64,000 nucleotides of DNA from Acidobacteriota bacterium (GTDB lineage: Bacteria; Acidobacteriota; Terriglobia; Terriglobales; Acidobacteriaceae), in the NCBI GenBank assembly GCA_016196065.1, contig JACPYL010000012.1:434001-498000 (forward strand). Reading direction: 5' to 3'. The position numbers were made by a program, and so were the translations under genes. Below are positions 12,174 to 41,652 of this stretch, in pieces (the first letter of the stretch is position 1; every line of letters starts with the position of its first letter). The notes under the pieces were generated by a model that did no database searches, was not told the origin of the DNA, and saw only the letters and a list, made by a program, of their open reading frames with translations.

Positions 12174-12294
12174 CAGGTTAGAGGTTAGAGGTCAGATTGC
12201 AGAGGTAGCCTCGAGCTACGCGCTTCGAGCTGGTCCGAACTGGTTGCCCGAAGCTCGCCGCTCGAAGACCGCAGCTGACGCTGCGGTCTGACCT
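12174..12294. repeat. Palindromic word-type intergenic repeat (AGCTCGAAG family), copy 1
   Basis: The gap between the CpaE-like gene and the M50 peptidase gene is filled with near-repeated words: AGGTTAGAGGTTAGAGGTC, then CGAGCTACGCGCTTCGAGCT, then GAAGCTCGCCGCTCGAAG, then a perfect stem AGACCGCAG/CTGCGGTCT. Outer AGGTCAGA and TCTGACCT are also complementary. Related words occur at 41568-41615, 42836-42870 and inside dnaG at 16678-16728. Confidence 0.7.
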
Positions 12295-13000: not shown

Positions 13001-14062
13001 ATGACTGATTCCAACAAGACTGTTTCAATCAACAAGAAACGCGTTCTGAGCGGCATGCGCTCTACGGGCAAACTTCACCTCGGCAACTACGTCGGCGCGC
13101 TTGAAAACTGGGTGCGCATGCAAGACCAGTACGAGTGCTTCTTTTTCATCGCCGACTGGCACGCGCTGACCACCGATTATGCCGACACGTCGCGCATCAA
13201 AGAAAATTCCGTCGACGTATTACTGGATTGGCTGGCGGCCGGACTCGATCCCGAGAAGTGCGTGATGTTCATCCAGTCGCACGTGCCTGCCCATGCGGAA
13301 CTGCACTTACTCTTTTCGATGATCACTCCCCTGGGTTGGCTGGAGCGCGTTCCCACTTACAAAGAGCAGCGCGAGAACATCAAAGAGAAAGACTTGGGGA
13401 CGTATGGATTCCTCGGCTACCCGGTTCTTCAGTCCGCGGACATTTTGATCTACAAAGCGGATGGCGTGCCTGTGGGCGAGGATCAAGTCGCCCACGTTGA
13501 GCTCACACGGGAGATCGCGCGGCGCTTCAATGGCTTTTATCAAGGCAAGCGGGGCCCGATTTTTCCTGAGCCGAAGGCTTTGCTGACGCCAACGCCCAAA
13601 CTTCCCGGTACCGACGGCCGCAAGATGTCGAAGTCCTACGGCAACACCATCATGCTCACCGATCCCGAACCGGTGGTCCGCCAGAAGCTGAAATCCATGG
13701 TGACGGACCCAGCCCGTGTTCGGCGCACTGATCCGGGAAATCCCGATGTCTGTCCTGTCGGAGACTTGCACAAGATATTCAGCGACCAGGCCACCATGGA
13801 AAAGGTAAACGTCGGCTGCCGTTCCGCGGGCATCGGCTGCATCGAATGCAAGGGTTGGGCTGCTGACGCACTGGTGAAAGTGCTCAATCCCATGCAGGAG
13901 CGTCGTAAAAAATACGAGGACAATCCGCGCCTCGCGTGGGATATTCTTGAAGCCGGCTCGGCGCGTGCCGCCCAGGTAGCGGCCCAAACCATGGACGAGG
14001 TGCGGGATTCCATGGGTATGTCGTTGCATTACGAGCCAAAGGGCAAAAGCATAACGAAGTGA
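13001..14062 (+). CDS. trpS: Tryptophanyl-tRNA synthetase
   Basis: Class I aminoacyl-tRNA synthetase that charges tRNA-Trp. The HIGH-equivalent is GKLHLGNYVGAL near residue 24 and the KMSKS motif is perfect (GRKMSKSYGNT). SADILIYKADGVPVGEDQVAH is typical of TrpRS. A C-terminal cysteine-containing segment, GCRSAGIGCIECKGWAAD, resembles that of bacterial TrpRS in which a cluster or metal may bind. The 353 residues fit. The ATG immediately follows the M50 protease stop, and the terminal TGA overlaps the scpA GTG. Confidence 0.96.
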   Translation: MTDSNKTVSINKKRVLSGMRSTGKLHLGNYVGALENWVRMQDQYECFFFIADWHALTTDYADTSRIKENSVDVLLDWLAAGLDPEKCVMFIQSHVPAHAELHLLFSMITPLGWLERVPTYKEQRENIKEKDLGTYGFLGYPVLQSADILIYKADGVPVGEDQVAHVELTREIARRFNGFYQGKRGPIFPEPKALLTPTPKLPGTDGRKMSKSYGNTIMLTDPEPVVRQKLKSMVTDPARVRRTDPGNPDVCPVGDLHKIFSDQATMEKVNVGCRSAGIGCIECKGWAADALVKVLNPMQERRKKYEDNPRLAWDILEAGSARAAQVAAQTMDEVRDSMGMSLHYEPKGKSITK

Positions 14063-14931
14063 CGAACGTTTCCCAACTCGCATCGGACCAGGCACCTGTG
14101 CCCAACGCGGCATCGGTGCCGGAGTCAACGGCTCCGAAAAGCACCCACCGCGACGAAAATGATTTTCCATTTTCGATCGATCTCGGCGGAGTATATGACG
14201 GCCCGCTCGACCTGCTGCTCGACCTGATCCGCAAGCAGGACATCAATATCTACGACATCCCGATCGCAAAGATCACTGCGCAATATCTCGTCTACGTGGA
14301 GCGCATCAAGGAACTCGACGTCAACGTTGCCTCGGAATTCATCTACATGGCAGCGGTGCTGATTCACATCAAGTCGAAGATGCTGCTGCCGCGCGACCCG
14401 CTCGCTCCCGCAGGTGTCGTCGACGATCCGCGCAGTGAACTCGTCAATCGGTTGCTGGAACACGAGAAGTTCAAGTCAGCCGCGCAGATGCTTCTGCAAA
14501 AGCAGCAGATCGAAGAAGCCGTAATGAGCAATCCTGCGCTCAAGGAATTCATGGACGCCGAAGGCACCGAGCCTGAACTGGCGGCCGATGTCATCGACCT
14601 GGTGAAAACCTTTCAGCAGATTCTGGACCGCGCCCGCAACCGTCCGATGATCGAAGTGAATGAAGAGACGGTAACGGTTGGGCAGATGATTCAGTATCTG
14701 CATCGCAGGCTCGCGATCGAGTCGCGTCCGATCCGCCTTAAGCAAATGCTGCGGAACGTGCCGTCGCGCCAGGCGCTGGTATGCATGTTCCTCGCGATGC
14801 TGGAACTGGTGCGTCTGCAAGCCATTCAGGTACGGCAAGATCATGTCTTCGGCGAAGTCCTGGTTCGCAAGCATGCTCACTTCGATGAAGTGATGACGGA
14901 ACAGGCCGCGACAAGGGACGACTGGAGATAA
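14059..14931 (+). CDS. scpA: Segregation and condensation protein A
   Basis: Kleisin subunit of the bacterial Smc-ScpAB condensin; it bridges the SMC heads. The family core is clear: YDGPLDLLLDLIRKQDINIYDIPI, then YIMAAVLIHIKSKMLLP-like sequence, and a C-terminal winged-helix region containing the FLAMLELVRL motif. The 290 residues include an N-terminal ~35-residue low-complexity extension. Start is GTG 14059, overlapping the trpS stop. It is followed by the scpB gene after an 85-base palindromic linker. Confidence 0.94.
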   Translation: MTNVSQLASDQAPVPNAASVPESTAPKSTHRDENDFPFSIDLGGVYDGPLDLLLDLIRKQDINIYDIPIAKITAQYLVYVERIKELDVNVASEFIYMAAVLIHIKSKMLLPRDPLAPAGVVDDPRSELVNRLLEHEKFKSAAQMLLQKQQIEEAVMSNPALKEFMDAEGTEPELAADVIDLVKTFQQILDRARNRPMIEVNEETVTVGQMIQYLHRRLAIESRPIRLKQMLRNVPSRQALVCMFLAMLELVRLQAIQVRQDHVFGEVLVRKHAHFDEVMTEQAATRDDWR

Positions 14932-15016
14932 AAGAGCAGTGGATGGTGATTAGTGGCTAGTTCGTCAAGCCACGGTTCTGCTAATCACTCACCACTAGTC
15001 ACTCACCACTGAATTT
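14932..15016. repeat. Intercistronic palindromic linker, copy 1 (scpA-scpB)
   Basis: The linker fills the whole gap from the scpA stop to the scpB ATG. It begins AAGAGCAGTGG, contains GTGATTAGTGGCTAG and its rough complements CTAATCACTCACCACTAG and TCACTCACCACT, and ends GAATTT right at the ATG. The same ends and internal words appear in the ispD-ispF gap (28166-28252). It can fold into an imperfect long stem. Confidence 0.85.
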
Positions 15017-15751
15017 ATGAGTCTAAAAGCCCAACTCGAAGCCATCATTTACGCGACGGAATCCCCGATTTCGCTGGACCACATCGTCCAACTGGTGAAG
15101 GCCGAAGTTCTCGCCGCCGGCGCTGCCGATGACAACGAAGTGAAATCGCGCGTTCGCGCCACGCTCGAAGAACTGACCGCCGACTACGCGAGCGCCGATC
15201 ACGGTATCGAAGTGCGCCAGCTCGCCGGCGGATATCGTATGTCCACCAAGCCCGAGCAGCACGATACGGTTCGCGCCTTCGCCAAGAGCCTGAAGCCGCC
15301 GATTCGCCTCTCGCTCCCCGCGCTCGAAACCCTGGCGGTGATCGCTTACAAGCAACCCGTGACTGTCCCGGAAATCAGCGAAATTCGCGGTGTCGATTCC
15401 AACGGCGTCATCGCTACTCTGCTCGATCGCAAACTCATCACCACTGCCGGACGCAAAGCCGTGATCGGCCGCCCGATCCTGTACAAGACGAGCCGGGAAT
15501 TTCTGCTGCGCTTTGGACTGAAAGACGTTGGCGAATTGCCGAGCATGGAAGAATTCGAAAAATTGCTGGCCGAATCGTTCCAGAGCGATTTGCCGACGGA
15601 AGCGCCGGTTGAGAGCACGGCTGTCGACACTCCGGAGCCGATTGAGGCCATGGAAGTGCCAGCCGCTGAAACCACGGCTGCCGACGATGACACGACCGCA
15701 GAAATTGTCCTGCCACAAATCGCAGCGGATAAGACGAACCCAGCGGCGTAG
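15017..15751 (+). CDS. scpB: Segregation and condensation protein B
   Basis: ScpB dimerises and binds ScpA in the Smc-ScpAB complex. The two winged-helix domains are recognisable: LEAIIYATESPISLDHIVQLV at the N-terminus and LSLPALETLAVIAYKQPVTVPEI with EIRGVDSNGVI and RPILYKTSREFLLRFGL in the second. Residues beyond ~185 form an acidic Ala/Glu/Thr-rich tail. The ATG at 15017 sits exactly at the end of the palindromic linker and has no conventional ribosome binding site. Confidence 0.94.
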   Translation: MSLKAQLEAIIYATESPISLDHIVQLVKAEVLAAGAADDNEVKSRVRATLEELTADYASADHGIEVRQLAGGYRMSTKPEQHDTVRAFAKSLKPPIRLSLPALETLAVIAYKQPVTVPEISEIRGVDSNGVIATLLDRKLITTAGRKAVIGRPILYKTSREFLLRFGLKDVGELPSMEEFEKLLAESFQSDLPTEAPVESTAVDTPEPIEAMEVPAAETTAADDDTTAEIVLPQIAADKTNPAA

Positions 15752-16029: not shown

Positions 16030-17985
16030 ATGACCTCGGACAACAATTTCAAAGAAGGCCTCAAGCAGCAGGCTGACATCGTTCGCATCGTCGGCGACTA
16101 CGTCAAGCTGCGCAAGGCCGGGGCGCAAAATTTTTCAGGGTTGTGTCCGTTTCACAGCGAGAAGACGCCATCGTTTTCCGTGCATGCCTCGCGGCAGTTC
16201 TACCACTGTTTTGGATGCGGCGCTTCGGGAGACGTTTTCAGCTTCGTCCAAAAAGTCGAGAACATTACCTTCCCGGAGTCCGTTCGCCTGATCGCGCAAA
16301 AACTCGGCGTGCCCATGCCGAAAGTGGCGTTCTCCAGCCCGCAGGAAGCGCACGAAGCGAAGATTCGCATGGCCCTGCTCGACATTCACGAGCGCGCGAC
16401 AACGTTCTTTCAGGAATGTTTGCGGCGTCCTGAGGGAGCGACGGCGCGCGAATATTTGAAAAGCCGCGGGTTGACTGCCGATACCATCGCCACATTCAAG
16501 ATTGGTTACGCCCCGGATTCCGGTTTTTTACTCCGCGATGCGTTGCGGCGTGAATTCGATGAAGCACTGTTGCGCGAGAGCGGCCTTTTCTCGTGGAAGC
16601 ACACAGAGGGCGAACAGCAGGTGCTTCGCTCCGCTCAGGATGACAAGTCAAAAGCAGGTAGTCCCGGCAAAGCAGGCGCCGGACCGGAGAGTTCCAAGCC
16701 CGCAGCCCGTAGCTCGCAGCCCGAAGCCATCTACTCCAAATTCCGCAATCGCGTCATGTTCCCGATTGCCAACGATCAGGGGAAAGTCATCGCGTTCACC
16801 GGGCGGACTCTCGCGACTGACGAAAAAGCCGGACCAAAATATCTGAATTCCCCCGAGACGCCCATCTATTCCAAGTCTCGTGTGCTCTTCAACCTTGACC
16901 ATGCAAAGGAAGCGATTCGCAAACTGGAATACGCGATCCTGGTCGAAGGGCAGATGGACTGCATCTCCGTTTCCGAGGCCGGGTTCCACAACGTGATCGC
17001 TTCGTCCGGCACTGCCTTCACAGAGCTGCAGGCAAAATTGCTGGGACGATTTTCAAAAAACGTCGTCGTCAATTTCGATCCCGACACGGCCGGAGCCCGC
17101 GCCACCGAACGCACGCTTGGCCTGCTCACGGAAGAAGAATTCAATATCAAGGTGCTGACGCTCGAGACCGGATTCGATCCTGACCTTTACATTCGGCGAA
17201 AAGGCCGCGACGCTTACGCCGAAGCCCTGAAACACTCGCAACGTTATTTCGATTACCTGATTGAGCGCGCTCGCGCGCAATTTCCGGCCCGCACGGGCGA
17301 AGGCAAAGTTAAAGCGGTTAACTATCTGCTTCCCCATATCCAACGTGTTCCCAATCGAATTATCCGGGATGAGCTGGCGGCGGAAATTTCCCAAAAACTT
17401 GGCATCGATTCAGGAGTTCTGCGCCAGGAACTGAAACATGCCGCCGGCACGCGGTCAGCCGCGCAGGTAAAAGCGCCCGTCGACGCGCAGATCACTGGAG
17501 CGGAACGTGTCCTGATTCGTGCGCTTTCGTCAGCTACGCAAATGTCTCCAGGATCGTCACGCACTTCGGCTCGCGAGGGTACCGACGAAGAATTCGATCC
17601 AGCGCGGCAGGCGCAATATGTTTTGCAAGCGGAACATCTCCATCAAGGAATGTCCTCGCAGCCGCTGCTGGAAGCGCTTCTACAGGCAGGTCCCGAAACG
17701 CAGGACGTCATGGACCTTGCTCCCACCGAGGCGGACCGTCGTTTGCTGGCGTCGATCCTGATGGATGAAGACGAAGAACTCACGCCCGAAAATCTGGAGG
17801 GCGCCGTGCGGGCTCTGCGGCGGATTCACTTGCGCCGGCGGCTCGAGCAGGTCCAGCAGGAACTCCAGCGCTCCGGCCGGCAGATGGAAGAAATGCAGGC
17901 ATTGCTGCAGGAACGAGTTCGTTTGAAGCGCGCCCTGATGGACCCGAGCGTTGCCGAAAATAGCCCGCCCCCCGCGCCGTTCTAG
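16030..17985 (+). CDS. dnaG: DNA primase with repeat-derived internal insertion
   Basis: Makes RNA primers at the replication fork. The N-terminal CHC2 zinc site is CPFH...CFGC (residues ~40-65). The catalytic core has RNRVMFPIAND, then TOPRIM motifs ILVEGQMDCISV near residue 302 and VVNFDPDTAGARA near residue 346. The C-terminal ~150 residues are the weakly conserved helicase-binding region. Residues ~193-233, between the ESGLF helix and YSKFRNRVMFPI, are an extra segment (VLRSAQDDK... KPAARSSQPEA) encoded by two dispersed repeats. In E. coli about ten residues occupy this loop. The 651-residue total is long for DnaG partly for that reason. Confidence 0.95.
   Translation: MTSDNNFKEGLKQQADIVRIVGDYVKLRKAGAQNFSGLCPFHSEKTPSFSVHASRQFYHCFGCGASGDVFSFVQKVENITFPESVRLIAQKLGVPMPKVAFSSPQEAHEAKIRMALLDIHERATTFFQECLRRPEGATAREYLKSRGLTADTIATFKIGYAPDSGFLLRDALRREFDEALLRESGLFSWKHTEGEQQVLRSAQDDKSKAGSPGKAGAGPESSKPAARSSQPEAIYSKFRNRVMFPIANDQGKVIAFTGRTLATDEKAGPKYLNSPETPIYSKSRVLFNLDHAKEAIRKLEYAILVEGQMDCISVSEAGFHNVIASSGTAFTELQAKLLGRFSKNVVVNFDPDTAGARATERTLGLLTEEEFNIKVLTLETGFDPDLYIRRKGRDAYAEALKHSQRYFDYLIERARAQFPARTGEGKVKAVNYLLPHIQRVPNRIIRDELAAEISQKLGIDSGVLRQELKHAAGTRSAAQVKAPVDAQITGAERVLIRALSSATQMSPGSSRTSAREGTDEEFDPARQAQYVLQAEHLHQGMSSQPLLEALLQAGPETQDVMDLAPTEADRRLLASILMDEDEELTPENLEGAVRALRRIHLRRRLEQVQQELQRSGRQMEEMQALLQERVRLKRALMDPSVAENSPPPAPF
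16615..16728 (+). repeat. Two dispersed repeats inserted in frame inside dnaG
   Basis: Bases 16615-16645 match one arm (15840-15870) of the nearby palindrome at 29 of 31 positions and translate as QQVLRSAQDD. Bases ~16693-16726 are words of the AGCTCGAAG family (CCCGCAGCCCGTAGCTCGCA). Neither disrupts the frame. They fall in a predicted surface loop of the primase catalytic core. Confidence 0.85.
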
Positions 17986-27676: not shown

Positions 27677-28165
27677 CTATCCAACCGAATCTAGTCGCTG
27701 CAGCAATACCGCAACCTGCGCAATCGCCGCGTTGTCCGTCCCGATGCCTTCAGGCGTTTTTGCTTTGATCCCTACGCAGTCTCCGGGAATTCCGCATAAC
27801 TCCGACACATGCTTTCGCAGTGCGCCTGCGTGTGGGCCAATCTTCGGTGCGGCCAGGATCAACGTGGAATCCAGATTGACCAACGCATAGCCCGCCTCTG
27901 CCACCCGTTTCAAAGCTTCGCGCAAGAAGACCGCAGAGTCTGCTCCCTTCCATTGCGGATCAGACGGTGGAAAGAGCGAACCGATATCGGGCCCAGCGAT
28001 TGCGCCCAAGAGCGCATCCGTGATGGCATGCAGCAAGACGTCGCCGTCGGAATGGCCGCCCAGGCCCTTGTCATAGGGCAGGGAAAGGCCGCCGATCATG
28101 AGCGGAATACCAGCTTTGAACTCATGCGAGTCCCAGCCAAAACCGATGCGCATTTCAGGTTGCAT
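27677..28165 (-). CDS. ispF: 2-C-methyl-D-erythritol 2,4-cyclodiphosphate synthase
   Basis: Fifth step of the MEP isoprenoid pathway: CDP-ME 2-phosphate to MEcPP with release of CMP. Motifs are RIGFGWDSHEF (metal-binding D-x-H), GGHSDGDVLLHAITDALLGA, IGSLFPPSD and the end KAKTPEGIGTDNAAIAQVAVLL. Start ATG 28165 is placed where the palindromic linker ends; a second ATG at 28153 is equally consistent with the family. At ~162 residues it is standard. It follows ispD on the same strand. Confidence 0.94.
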   Translation of the reverse strand: MQPEMRIGFGWDSHEFKAGIPLMIGGLSLPYDKGLGGHSDGDVLLHAITDALLGAIAGPDIGSLFPPSDPQWKGADSAVFLREALKRVAEAGYALVNLDSTLILAAPKIGPHAGALRKHVSELCGIPGDCVGIKAKTPEGIGTDNAAIAQVAVLLQRLDSVG

Positions 28166-28252
28166 AAATTCGAGTGATTGGTGATTAGTGGTAAGCAGAA
28201 ACGTCATGTCCTTTGACTCACCACTAATCACAAATCACTAGCCACTGCTCTT
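28166..28252. repeat. Intercistronic palindromic linker, copy 2 (ispD-ispF)
   Basis: Read on the minus strand, this starts AAAGAGCAGTGG, contains GTGATTTGTGATTAGTGG and, after a short centre, CCACTAATCACCAATCACTC, and ends GAATTT at the ispF ATG. Arms 28172-28191 and 28221-28240 pair at 18 of 20 positions. The first 12 and last 6 bases equal those of the scpA-scpB linker, in the same orientation relative to the genes. The ispD stop codon lies inside it. Confidence 0.87.
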
Positions 28253-28972
28253 TAAATAGAATTCCGCCAGTTCCATATCCGCCGGCGTGGTGATTTTCAA
28301 ATTACGAGGTGTTCCCATGACGACTGCCACCGGATGTCCGGACCGTTCGATCAGGGATGCTTCATCCGTTCCTACAAAGCCATCCGCCGCGGCATCGTCG
28401 AAAGCCTGCTTCAGAATGTCGTAGCGAATTCCTTGCGGAGTTTGCGCCATGACAACGCTCGCGCGCGGAATCGTTGCTTTGATCAACGCACCGTCCGAAG
28501 TACGCTCCACTTGTTTGACAGTGTCGACCGCCGGCGTTCCAGCAATCGCGGCGCCATGTTTCCCGGTTGCGGCGATCACCTCGCTGATGATTTCGGAGGT
28601 CACCAGAGGACGCACTCCATCATGTACGAGCACCACATCACTCGGATCGGCAGCAATCGCCGCCAGCGCGTTGGCGACGGAGTCTTGACGGTGTTCGCCG
28701 CCTTCTACCATCTGCAGGCGCTTCTTCAATATCTCCGGATATTCCTTTTCGAGCTGGGCGCGGAAGCCGGCAATTTCATTCTTCCGCAGCGCGATCACGA
28801 TCTCATACACCTCCGGGCACTCCGCAAATCGCCGCAGCGTATGGACCAGGATCGGGATGCCGCCCAATTCCTTGAATTGCTTGGATGGCGTTTTCTTTTT
28901 CGACTTGGTTGCCGCAGGGGGGGCCATGCGCGTGCCCAGTCCGGCCGCCGGAACAATGACAAACACCTTCAT
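28238..28972 (-). CDS. ispD: 2-C-methyl-D-erythritol 4-phosphate cytidylyltransferase
   Basis: Third step of the MEP pathway: joins CTP and MEP to give CDP-ME. The signature VIVPAAGLGTRM is followed by an unusual basic insert, APPAATKSKKKTPSKQF, before the conserved Lys-Gln. VHDGVRPLV, TIPRASVVMAQTPQ and TDEASLIERSG are family motifs. Length 244. The last codons (KSSG, then TAG) are contributed by the palindromic linker. The neighbouring YacL-like PIN-TRAM gene reproduces the yacL-ispD-ispF order known from Bacillus. Confidence 0.94.
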   Translation of the reverse strand: MKVFVIVPAAGLGTRMAPPAATKSKKKTPSKQFKELGGIPILVHTLRRFAECPEVYEIVIALRKNEIAGFRAQLEKEYPEILKKRLQMVEGGEHRQDSVANALAAIAADPSDVVLVHDGVRPLVTSEIISEVIAATGKHGAAIAGTPAVDTVKQVERTSDGALIKATIPRASVVMAQTPQGIRYDILKQAFDDAAADGFVGTDEASLIERSGHPVAVVMGTPRNLKITTPADMELAEFYLKSSG

Positions 28973-38934: not shown

Positions 38935-39074
38935 GGAAGCTGCTAGCTTCTGGCTACTAGCTTCTAGCAAGCAAAGTTTCGAACAAGAATTCTGGAAAGG
39001 GTTGATCGGCCATAGCGACTCGCTTCGCAACTCAGTTTGCTAGAAGCCAGTAGCTAGTAGCCAGAAGCGAAATC
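38935..39074. repeat. Palindromic word-type linker between rplM and rpsI
   Basis: Left arm 38942-38972 (GCTAGCTTCTGGCTACTAGC...) and right arm 39035-39068 (GTTTGCTAGAAGCCAGTAGC...) are imperfect complements, joined by ~60 bases. It spans the entire gap up to the rpsI ATG. In most bacteria this gap is about 20 bases. Confidence 0.85.
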
Positions 39075-39470: not shown

Positions 39471-39475
39471 GTCGC

Positions 39476-39534
39476 GTCGTTCGTCCTTCGCAGTTCGCAC
39501 CTTTCGCCGTAGCGAAGGACGAATAGCGAACGAC
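39476..39534. repeat. Hairpin between rpsI and rpsB
   Basis: GTCCTTCGC (39483-39491) pairs with GCGAAGGAC (39512-39520) and, after a 7-base bulge, GTCGTTC (39476-39482) pairs with GAACGAC (39528-39534). A weaker CCCCACCTCCCCC / GAGATGGGGTGG pairing follows at ~39588-39615. Confidence 0.7.
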
Positions 39535-41540: not shown

Positions 41541-41567
41541 TTATGCTCTGTGGGCGGCGAGCCACGG

Positions 41568-41615
41568 GCTTTGAGCTTCGGGCAACCCGCGTACCGGTTG
41601 CTCGAAGCTCAAAGC
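41568..41615. repeat. Palindromic repeat between tsf and pyrH (AGCTCGAAG family)
   Basis: GCTTTGAGCTTCGGGCAACC (41568-41587) and GGTTGCTCGAAGCTCAAAGC (41596-41615), one mismatch that pairs as G-U in RNA, eight-base loop. More AGCTCGTAGCACGAAGC words follow up to pyrH. Confidence 0.88.
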
Positions 41616-41652
41616 TCGTAGCACGAAGCCTGGGTAACTGAGAACTCTCTTC

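What the first reader, a model, noticed from the sequence alone, without database searches (positions are those of the whole stretch)
14929..15019. Same intercistronic linker joins scpA-scpB and ispD-ispF, delivering the start codon site
Both linkers occupy the whole gap, begin AAAGAGCAGTGG at the upstream gene's end, share GTGATTAGTGG and ACCACTAATCAC-type arms, and end GAATTT directly before the downstream ATG. Orientation relative to transcription is the same. Unrelated gene pairs should not share gap boundaries unless the element inserts or is maintained specifically at such junctions. Neither downstream gene shows a normal Shine-Dalgarno, so the hairpin might influence translation or RNA processing.
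Basis: seen in the sequence. Interest (0 to 1): 0.75.

Follow-up and report, generated by a model that had tools for sequence, protein, structure and literature searches.

The report
Seven-base repeat hairpins after stop codons
The two similar gene-to-gene linkers are members of a large set of short repeat elements in an Acidobacteriota genome, built from seven-base words arranged as two mirror-image arms and mostly sitting just after stop codons, with the words differing between related species while the site and layout often stay.

Summary
The two linkers are real, but not a private linker of two gene pairs. They belong to a large set of extragenic elements in this Acidobacteriota (Terriglobales-type) genome. 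A complete element is two inverted arms of tandem 7-bp units (e.g. GTGATTA, GTTCTCA, GTCGTTG, GCTTCTA, GGTCAGA) around a variable loop. In 800 kb, lag-7 repeats number 85, against 4-12 for lags 4, 5, 8, 10 and 11. Arrays are polar: 40 of 40 oriented arrays within 12 nt of a gene edge face outward. Of 20 hairpins with room to lie elsewhere, 17 hug a stop codon (3.8 expected). At scpA-scpB of 80 named relatives the layout often recurs, but the heptamer differs even between sister species. One 15-mer varies from 0 to 81 copies among 24 same-genus genomes. Arms fit their own partner better than others', yet stem mismatches show no RNA-strand bias, so arms look kept alike at DNA level. The exact boundaries AAAGAG and GAATTT are not general. 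I read it as a REP-like, stop-codon-hugging repeat class with heptamer-built arms: a new variant of a known kind. A role in translation or RNA processing is not shown.

The parts
14059..14931 (+). scpA, stop TAA at 14929-14931
   Evidence: Pfam PF02616, E 8e-30; sequence
14931..15016 (+). Element A: the whole scpA-scpB linker; A-rich start, left arm 14937-14961, loop, right arm 14981-15010, GAATTT 15011-15016
   Evidence: lag 7 is the best lag of 3-12 and hairpin z is 9.0. Missed by the lag-7 scan (threshold)
15017..15751 (+). scpB, ATG directly after element A
   Evidence: Pfam PF04079, E 1.1e-47
28238..28972 (-). ispD; its stop TAG 28238-28240 lies in element B
   Evidence: Pfam PF01128, E 3.4e-57; same-genus comparison
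28166..28253 (-). Element B: left arm 28247-28216, loop, right arm about 28194-28172, GAATTT 28171-28166
   Evidence: found as a hairpin by the lag-7 scan
27677..28165 (-). ispF from the ATG after element B (alternative start 28153)
   Evidence: Pfam PF02542, E 7.1e-53
12175..12294 (+). Another element of the set (AGAGGTC/AGATTGC units), by eye with a GCTCGAA-type pair nested in its loop
29101..29130 (.). Single array of CGAACGACC-type units, no partner found
38938..39068 (+). Element between rplM and rpsI, GCTTCTA-type arms about 70 nt apart around a loop holding GAAAGG
39475..39523 (+). Element starting 4 nt after the rpsI stop, GTCGTTC-type units
41558..41629 (.). Element of GCTCGAA-type units

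Best explanation
The linkers are two members of a set of extragenic inverted-repeat elements that work like REP elements but are built from 7-bp words. A complete element is two inverted arms of tandem heptamers, polar (general form about RGBNNYB reading away from the gene edge), around a loop that differs between loci. Elements mostly lie directly after a stop codon and, where the next gene is close, run up to its start codon; in ispD the stop codon lies in the repeat. Shown: the periodicity, polarity and stop-codon hugging, many families in one genome, family copy numbers that differ between species, frequent retention of the site with change of the heptamer, and arms that fit their own partner without an RNA-strand bias. 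Inferred: that families spread between loci by some copying process, that arms are kept alike by DNA-level events (7-nt slippage and copying from one arm to the other), and that space after stop codons is where such growth is tolerated or aimed. Inferred and weak: when transcribed, the stem at the stop codon may slow terminating ribosomes, as reported for E. coli REPs, and the downstream gene may depend on coupling to the upstream gene.
For: Lag-7 repeats: 85 segments in 800 kb against 4-12 for lags 4, 5, 8, 10 and 11. Polarity: 40 outward and 0 inward within 12 nt of a gene edge; 24 oriented arrays lie farther away (13 outward, 11 inward), and 12 of 76 intergenic arrays had no clear orientation and were set aside. 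Stop codons: 17 of 20 hairpins with more than 20 nt of free room start within 12 nt of a stop, expected 3.8, largest of 20000 simulations 11 (2 divergent and 2 in-gene hairpins of 34 left out, 10 of the other 30 lacked room). Same site, other word: at scpA-scpB of 81 rows (80 relatives and the window), lag 7 is the best of lags 3-12 in 57 of 74 gaps of 30 nt or more. The heptamer class changes at least 30 times over 56 labelled rows; with shuffled labels the mean is 34.0 and 5 of 100 shuffles give 30 or fewer, so classes follow the tree hardly better than chance. Sister rows such as L091/L107, L067/L068 and L092/L104 differ. Arms fit their own partner better than others': 0 of 5000 permutations reach the observed mean in 57 scpAB and in 21 rplM-rpsI loci. 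No RNA-strand bias: G-U 57 / A-C 68, 32 / 37 and 14 / 16 in three sets. Dispersal: AGGTCAGATTGCAGA in 22 of 24 same-genus genomes, 0 to 81 copies each, backwards control 0 in all 24. CAGTTGCCAGTTGCCAGT in 18 of 150 genomes and 13 of 42 genera of the order, control 0 in all 150, with one long run of units in G065.
Against: Stop-codon hugging and retention at scpA-scpB could equally mean a selected function. Loops are not shared between loci, unlike a simple inserted element, and no target duplication or transposase was identified. Convergent gaps, with two stop codons, hold only 2 of the 34 hairpins (103 gaps) against 28 in 443 tandem gaps, although 11 of 28 copies of the AGGTCAGATTGCAGA family do lie between two stops. 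The own right arm is the best of all right arms in only 8 of 57 and 2 of 21 loci: families are shared, and permutations do not remove relatedness. The polarity motif was drawn up after looking at the same arrays. The ScpB tree is weak (35 of 78 inner branches open) and 14 of 56 class labels are doubtful. Gene edges come from my own simple caller.
Confidence: 0.6

Rival explanations
1. A selected RNA hairpin: the transcribed stem after the stop codon controls translation of the downstream gene, coupling or mRNA processing, and selection keeps the structure while the letters drift.
For: Tight spacing to stop and start: 44 and 37 of 51 scored scpAB loci within 12 nt. Elements sit between genes that are likely co-transcribed, such as rplM-rpsI and scpA-scpB (co-transcription inferred). 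scpB has no SD-like tetramer in 50 of 50 element loci. GAAAGG is kept between the arms in 21 of 21 delimited rplM-rpsI gaps.
Against: No G-U excess over A-C in stems. At rplM-rpsI three species have arms of two different families (L219, L226, L228; own scores 18, 12, 16) and L215 and L232 score 8, against a cross-species mean of 15.3. At ispD-ispF six same-genus loci (L187, L188, L193, L195, L197, L200) have no room for an element. Only 4 of 29 scpAB loci without a clear element have an SD-like tetramer.
Confidence: 0.2
2. REPs mobilised by RAYT / Y1 transposases, as in enterobacteria.
For: Six Y1_Tnp matches over the cut-off in this genome. REPs are reported close to stop codons (PMC12306157, passages) and GTAG REPs often supply the TAG stop (PMC3733652, passages), as at ispD. 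GTAG or CTAC occurs in 17 of 85 arrays.
Against: In the five Y1_Tnp loci read (of six), a scan of each whole 3.3-kb locus found only two short lag-7 segments, and flanks hold other palindromes. Single arms are not palindromes: self-complementarity mean z 0.11, z over 3 in 1 of 85.
Confidence: 0.1
3. Intrinsic transcription terminators, partly bidirectional.
For: Stem after a stop codon with A-rich 5' and T-rich 3' flanks (A 0.38 in the 8 nt upstream, T 0.35 in the 12 nt downstream).
Against: TTTT in the 12 nt after the stem in only 5 of 30 hairpins. Elements separate genes that are likely co-transcribed (rplM-rpsI, scpA-scpB). Convergent gaps are not enriched.
Confidence: 0.06
4. Neutral slippage arrays grown independently in tolerant gaps, with no dispersal.
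For: 7-nt units, one very long run in G065, arrays without a found partner (49 of 83 elements).
Against: Identical 15-mers and 18-mers at many unlinked loci with backwards controls of 0; inverted arm layout and outward polarity.
Confidence: 0.04

Closest known systems
Nostoc trnL intron P6b stem-loop, Class I (TDNGATT) and Class II (NNTGAGT) 7-nt repeats (PMC4476775; abstract and passages seen)
   Same: A stem built on one of two 7-nt repeat motifs; the paper infers repeated independent replacement of one motif by the other while the structure stays; repeats are gained or lost in units.
   Different: One locus inside a self-splicing intron of cyanobacteria; here 83 elements in 0.8 Mb between genes of an acidobacterium (hundreds if the rest is alike), many motifs, mostly at stop codons.
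REP elements / BIMEs (PMC12306157, PMC3733652; passages seen)
   Same: Dispersed, extragenic, inverted-repeat, often within 15 nt of a stop codon, sometimes supplying the stop codon.
   Different: REP units are 20-40 bp palindromes, in two large groups with GTAG or CGTC tags, some with RAYT genes; here each arm is a tandem heptamer array and not itself a palindrome.
TAACTGA heptamer direct repeats of Beggiatoaceae, cyanobacteria and Bacteroidetes (PMC4679880; abstract, passages and section 10 seen)
   Same: 7-nt tandem units between genes, close to gene edges, SD rare nearby, differences in 7-nt steps between close strains.
   Different: One heptamer as direct repeats, in the main genome mostly before start codons and with one inverted case; here inverted pairs of many heptamers, mostly after stop codons.
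Cyanobacterial STRR heptamers (recalled, Mazel and others; not read)
   Same: Short tandem heptamers dispersed in genomes.
   Different: Not known to me as stop-codon-anchored inverted pairs.

Membership tests
REP elements | Dispersed extragenic inverted repeat in many copies | tested here: met
   34 hairpins of 83 elements in 800 kb; a 15-mer family with 28 copies, all intergenic by my caller
REP elements | Frequent position within about 15 nt of a stop codon | tested here: met
   17 of 20 hairpins with room start within 12 nt of a stop
REP elements | Single 20-40 bp unit is itself a palindrome | tested here: not met
   Self-complementarity of 85 arrays against shuffles: mean z 0.11, z over 3 in 1
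REP elements | GTAG or CGTC tag | tested here: inconclusive
   GTAG/CTAC in 17 of 85 arrays and CGTC/GACG in 9 of 85, no chance level computed; 6 of 85 have GTAG/CTAC near an end
REP elements | Flanks a RAYT / Y1 transposase gene | tested here: not met
   0 of 5 Y1 loci read carry a heptamer-arm element (6 found in the genome)
Heptamer short tandem repeats (STRR / TAACTGA kind) | Tandem 7-nt units between genes | tested here: met
   85 lag-7 segments in 800 kb, 76 intergenic
Heptamer short tandem repeats (STRR / TAACTGA kind) | One dominant heptamer as direct repeats only | tested here: not met
   Many heptamers in one genome; inverted partners in 34 of 83 elements
Intrinsic terminator | Stem followed by a run of T | tested here: not met
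   TTTT in 5 of 30
Known Rfam RNA | Match at gathering score | tested here: not met
   0 matches in the window
Structured RNA element | Strand-specific tolerance of G-U pairs in stems | tested here: not met
   G-U not above A-C in three sets
Structured RNA element | Effect on expression or RNA ends | not testable with these tools
   No RNA data

The most novel reading that the evidence does not exclude
A separate class of stop-codon-anchored repeat: polar heptamer arrays in inverted pairs whose 7-base word is rewritten in place on both arms by a DNA-level copying process, so that the address and layout of an element outlive its sequence, across many genera of a bacterial order.
Probability: 0.4. 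Interest if true: 0.78.

Novelty: new variant of a known kind. Interest (0 to 1): 0.62.

Why it matters
It gives many natural replicates of a structure whose place and shape often persist while its letters differ, so what keeps inverted repeats alike (RNA function or DNA copying) can be tested directly. About a fifth of tandem gaps of 50-250 bp hold such an element in the sampled 800 kb (47 of 239), including the gap of a ribosomal-protein gene pair, which bears on translation without SD sites and on the annotation of gene ends.

Tried and rejected
RAYT origin: the five Y1_Tnp loci read lacked heptamer-arm elements. Terminator: few T runs. Rfam: no match in the window. An idea that the stem brings an upstream SD next to the start codon: the kept GAAAGG at rplM-rpsI lies 57-81 nt before the start between the arms, so the stem would not bring it there; not tested further. 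Claim of a strongly kept core at rplM-rpsI: core identity between loci with different arm families is 0.67 (19 pairs) against 0.53 for shuffled cores, and the measure is inflated by anchoring on GAAAGG, so only the hexamer itself (21 of 21 delimited gaps) is claimed. Empty-site analysis for target duplication: by eye, same-genus sites at ispD-ispF and at the gene upstream of trpS are too diverged to read exact insertion ends. Short-pattern counts were dropped as evidence because controls are as high. The lag-7 scan missed element A itself (threshold), so counts of elements are low estimates. The hairpin scan without the periodicity rule (129 hairpins, 34 with lag 7 as the best lag, 86 with none) was superseded. 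The genome-wide SD rate (323 of 651) is raised by my gene caller, which gives a bonus to starts with an SD, so it is not a clean yardstick. Literature: in the held library, two searches returned no paper; of the papers listed by others (6, 20 of 94, 10 of 3,611) none describes such repeats in Acidobacteriota by title, abstract start or the passages read. PMC3733652 mentions terminal repeats of a Koribacter tyrosine transposase as a repeated family, and PMC12306157 counts REPs in Granulicella by a general tool, so individual copies may have been counted before.

Full report
What is in the sequence. The scpA-scpB linker is 14931-15016 and the ispD-ispF linker is 28166-28253 on the minus strand. 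They share AAAGAGCAGTGG, GTGATTAGTGG and GAATTT before ATG, as stated. The ispD stop codon lies inside the repeat. Six same-genus loci without an element at that place (L187, L188, L193, L195, L197, L200) have other IspD ends and only 11 or 26 nt from the IspD stop to the conserved start of IspF; by eye, L194, L196 and L199 have the same family as the window and L186 and L192 another. The shared heptamer arms exceed chance.

What kind of thing. Both arms are made of 7-bp units. A scan of 800 kb of the own genome (C10:1-400000, C12:300001-700000) gives 85 lag-7 segments, against 4-12 for lags 4, 5, 8, 10 and 11 (lags 6, 9 and 12 give 41-50, as codons would). With a slightly lower threshold and merging, there are 83 elements, 34 with an inverted partner above control: 28 in tandem gaps, 2 convergent, 2 divergent, 2 inside called genes; of all 83, 13 are inside called genes. 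Heptamers seen in the one genome include AGTGATT, AGTTCTC, AGTCGTT, AGGTGTC, AGCACTC, AGCTTCT, AGCTACG and AGAGGTC with AGATTGC. 47 of 239 tandem gaps of 50-250 bp hold a lag-7 element. Samples of three same-genus genomes have 10.6-15.0 lag-7 segments per 100 kb (own 8.8 and 12.5; one segment of G013 is a run of N); the two larger samples of another family, G025 and G028, show no lag-7 excess over lag 8.

Position and polarity. Of 76 intergenic arrays, 64 have a clear orientation. 40 lie within 12 nt of a gene edge and all 40 face outward; 30 of the 40 are at stop codons and 10 at start codons. Of 20 hairpins with more than 20 nt of free room, 17 start within 12 nt of a stop, expected 3.8. Of 28 tandem hairpins, 9 reach within 12 nt of both genes. 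Of 28 exact copies of AGGTCAGATTGCAGA in the own genome (three pairs are two arms of one element), all are intergenic by my caller; 19 have a stop codon 1-24 nt before the 15-mer and 9 have a start codon at 25-178 nt. Gene edges are from my own dicodon caller, which mis-sets some starts.

Comparison at one site. For scpB, the best 80 of 208 loci of named relatives were kept by the tool; the records are MAG-type, labelled as Acidobacteriota groups except one labelled Verrucomicrobia. With the window that is 81 rows; 2 have no recognisable scpA end, 5 gaps are under 30 nt, and 74 remain. Lag 7 is the best lag in 57, an inverted repeat with z over 4 is present in 45, both in 40. In 51 loci with a scoring segment the array starts at a median of 5 nt after the stop (44 within 12) and ends at a median of 6 nt before ATG (37 within 12); 33 are within 12 nt on both sides. 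The heptamer class changes at least 30 times over 56 labelled rows (14 labels doubtful; 13 short, 10 unclassed and 2 unknown rows left out), with weak support for many branches. Shuffled labels need 34.0 changes on average, and 5 of 100 shuffles need 30 or fewer, so the class is close to random on this tree. Some loci have mixed arms, e.g. L087 with GTGGCC-type left and GTTGCC-type right units. Same-genus genomes overlap in part with the named set, as equal gap sequences show, so the sets are not independent.

A second site is rplM-rpsI. Of 23 same-genus loci, 21 gaps could be delimited. In 18 of 21 at least one arm passes my family rule: 9 have the same family on both sides, 3 two different families, and 6 only one called arm. 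GAAAGG lies between the arms in 21 of 21 (19 as GAAAGGT). In 16 loci of other genera, 5 had no motif match; by eye none of the other 11 shows the paired arrangement, though L302 has a short run that may be a single array.

RNA or DNA level. If the transcript stem were selected, G-U pairs should be tolerated more than A-C mismatches. Counts are 32 against 37 (28 own-genome tandem hairpins), 57 against 68 (46 scpAB stems) and 14 against 16 (10 rplM-rpsI stems); a first count on scpAB gave 55 against 63. Yet arms fit their own partner better than others' (own mean 27.8 against 16.1 at scpAB, 21.1 against 15.3 at rplM-rpsI; 0 of 5000 permutations at each), a test that does not remove relatedness. 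The own right arm is the best of all in only 8 of 57 and 2 of 21. This points to arms being kept alike by DNA-level events, or to recent origin, rather than to selection on the RNA; modest selection is not excluded by these numbers.

Dispersal. AGGTCAGATTGCAGA is present in 22 of 24 genomes of the genus with 0 to 81 copies (28 in the own genome), backwards control 0 in each. CAGTTGCCAGTTGCCAGT is in 18 of 150 genomes and 13 of 42 genera of the order, again with zero controls; G065 has a long run, and the own genome has none. Loops differ between loci (by eye), so the spreading unit is not a simple fixed-length insertion; at one site, relatives can share a loop (e.g. GCCACGG in the window, L103, L131 and L137). 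Y1 transposase loci (5 of 6 read) carry other palindromes instead.

Shine-Dalgarno. None of 50 element loci has GGAG, GAGG, AGGA, AAGG or AGGT at -20 to -4 of scpB, against 4 of 29 without a clear element; in the own genome 323 of 651 called genes have one, a rate raised by the caller's bonus. scpB is thus mostly without SD either way.

Relation to what is known. The nearest precedent for word turnover in a kept stem is the Nostoc trnL P6b region (PMC4476775, abstract and passages). For position and stop-codon supply it is REPs (PMC12306157; PMC3733652; passages). That stem-loops in general lie near stop codons is in PMC1590033 (passages). For intergenic heptamers it is the TAACTGA repeats (PMC4679880, abstract, passages and one section). 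The combination, many heptamers as inverted, outward-facing pairs at stop codons of Acidobacteriota, was not among the papers that my searches of the held library listed.

Noticed in passing
window 16620-16735, inside dnaG (16030-17985): The DnaG reading frame holds an in-frame stretch with a heptamer array (AGCCCGCAGCCCGTAGCTCGCAGCCCGAAGCC) and, by eye, a second repeat-like string, encoding a low-complexity stretch near the DNAG_N domain, which Pfam matches in two stretches.
   Followed up: partly
L185, L189, L190, L198, L201 (ispD-ispF of same-genus genomes): The same junction holds other palindromes instead (GCATCGCTTCAGCGATGCC, CCCCTTAGGGG, GGGCACGGCTTCAGCCGTGCC types), by eye similar to those around Y1 transposase genes.
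   Followed up: no
window 12175-12294; G000:C12:406569-406723: By eye, one heptamer element nested in the loop of another of a different family.
   Followed up: no
L105, L115, L119, L140 (scpA-scpB): Arrays with an 8-nt period (AAGGTTTC-like units) take the place of the 7-nt kind at the same site.
   Followed up: no
L388:9313-9330: A viral-collection contig carries an AGAGGTCAGATTGCAGAGGT arm shortly after a TGA; L387 has the 18-mer without arm context and may be chance.
   Followed up: no
window 39475-39523: rpsI is followed at 4 nt by a further heptamer element, so the rplM-rpsI pair carries elements after both stop codons.
   Followed up: no
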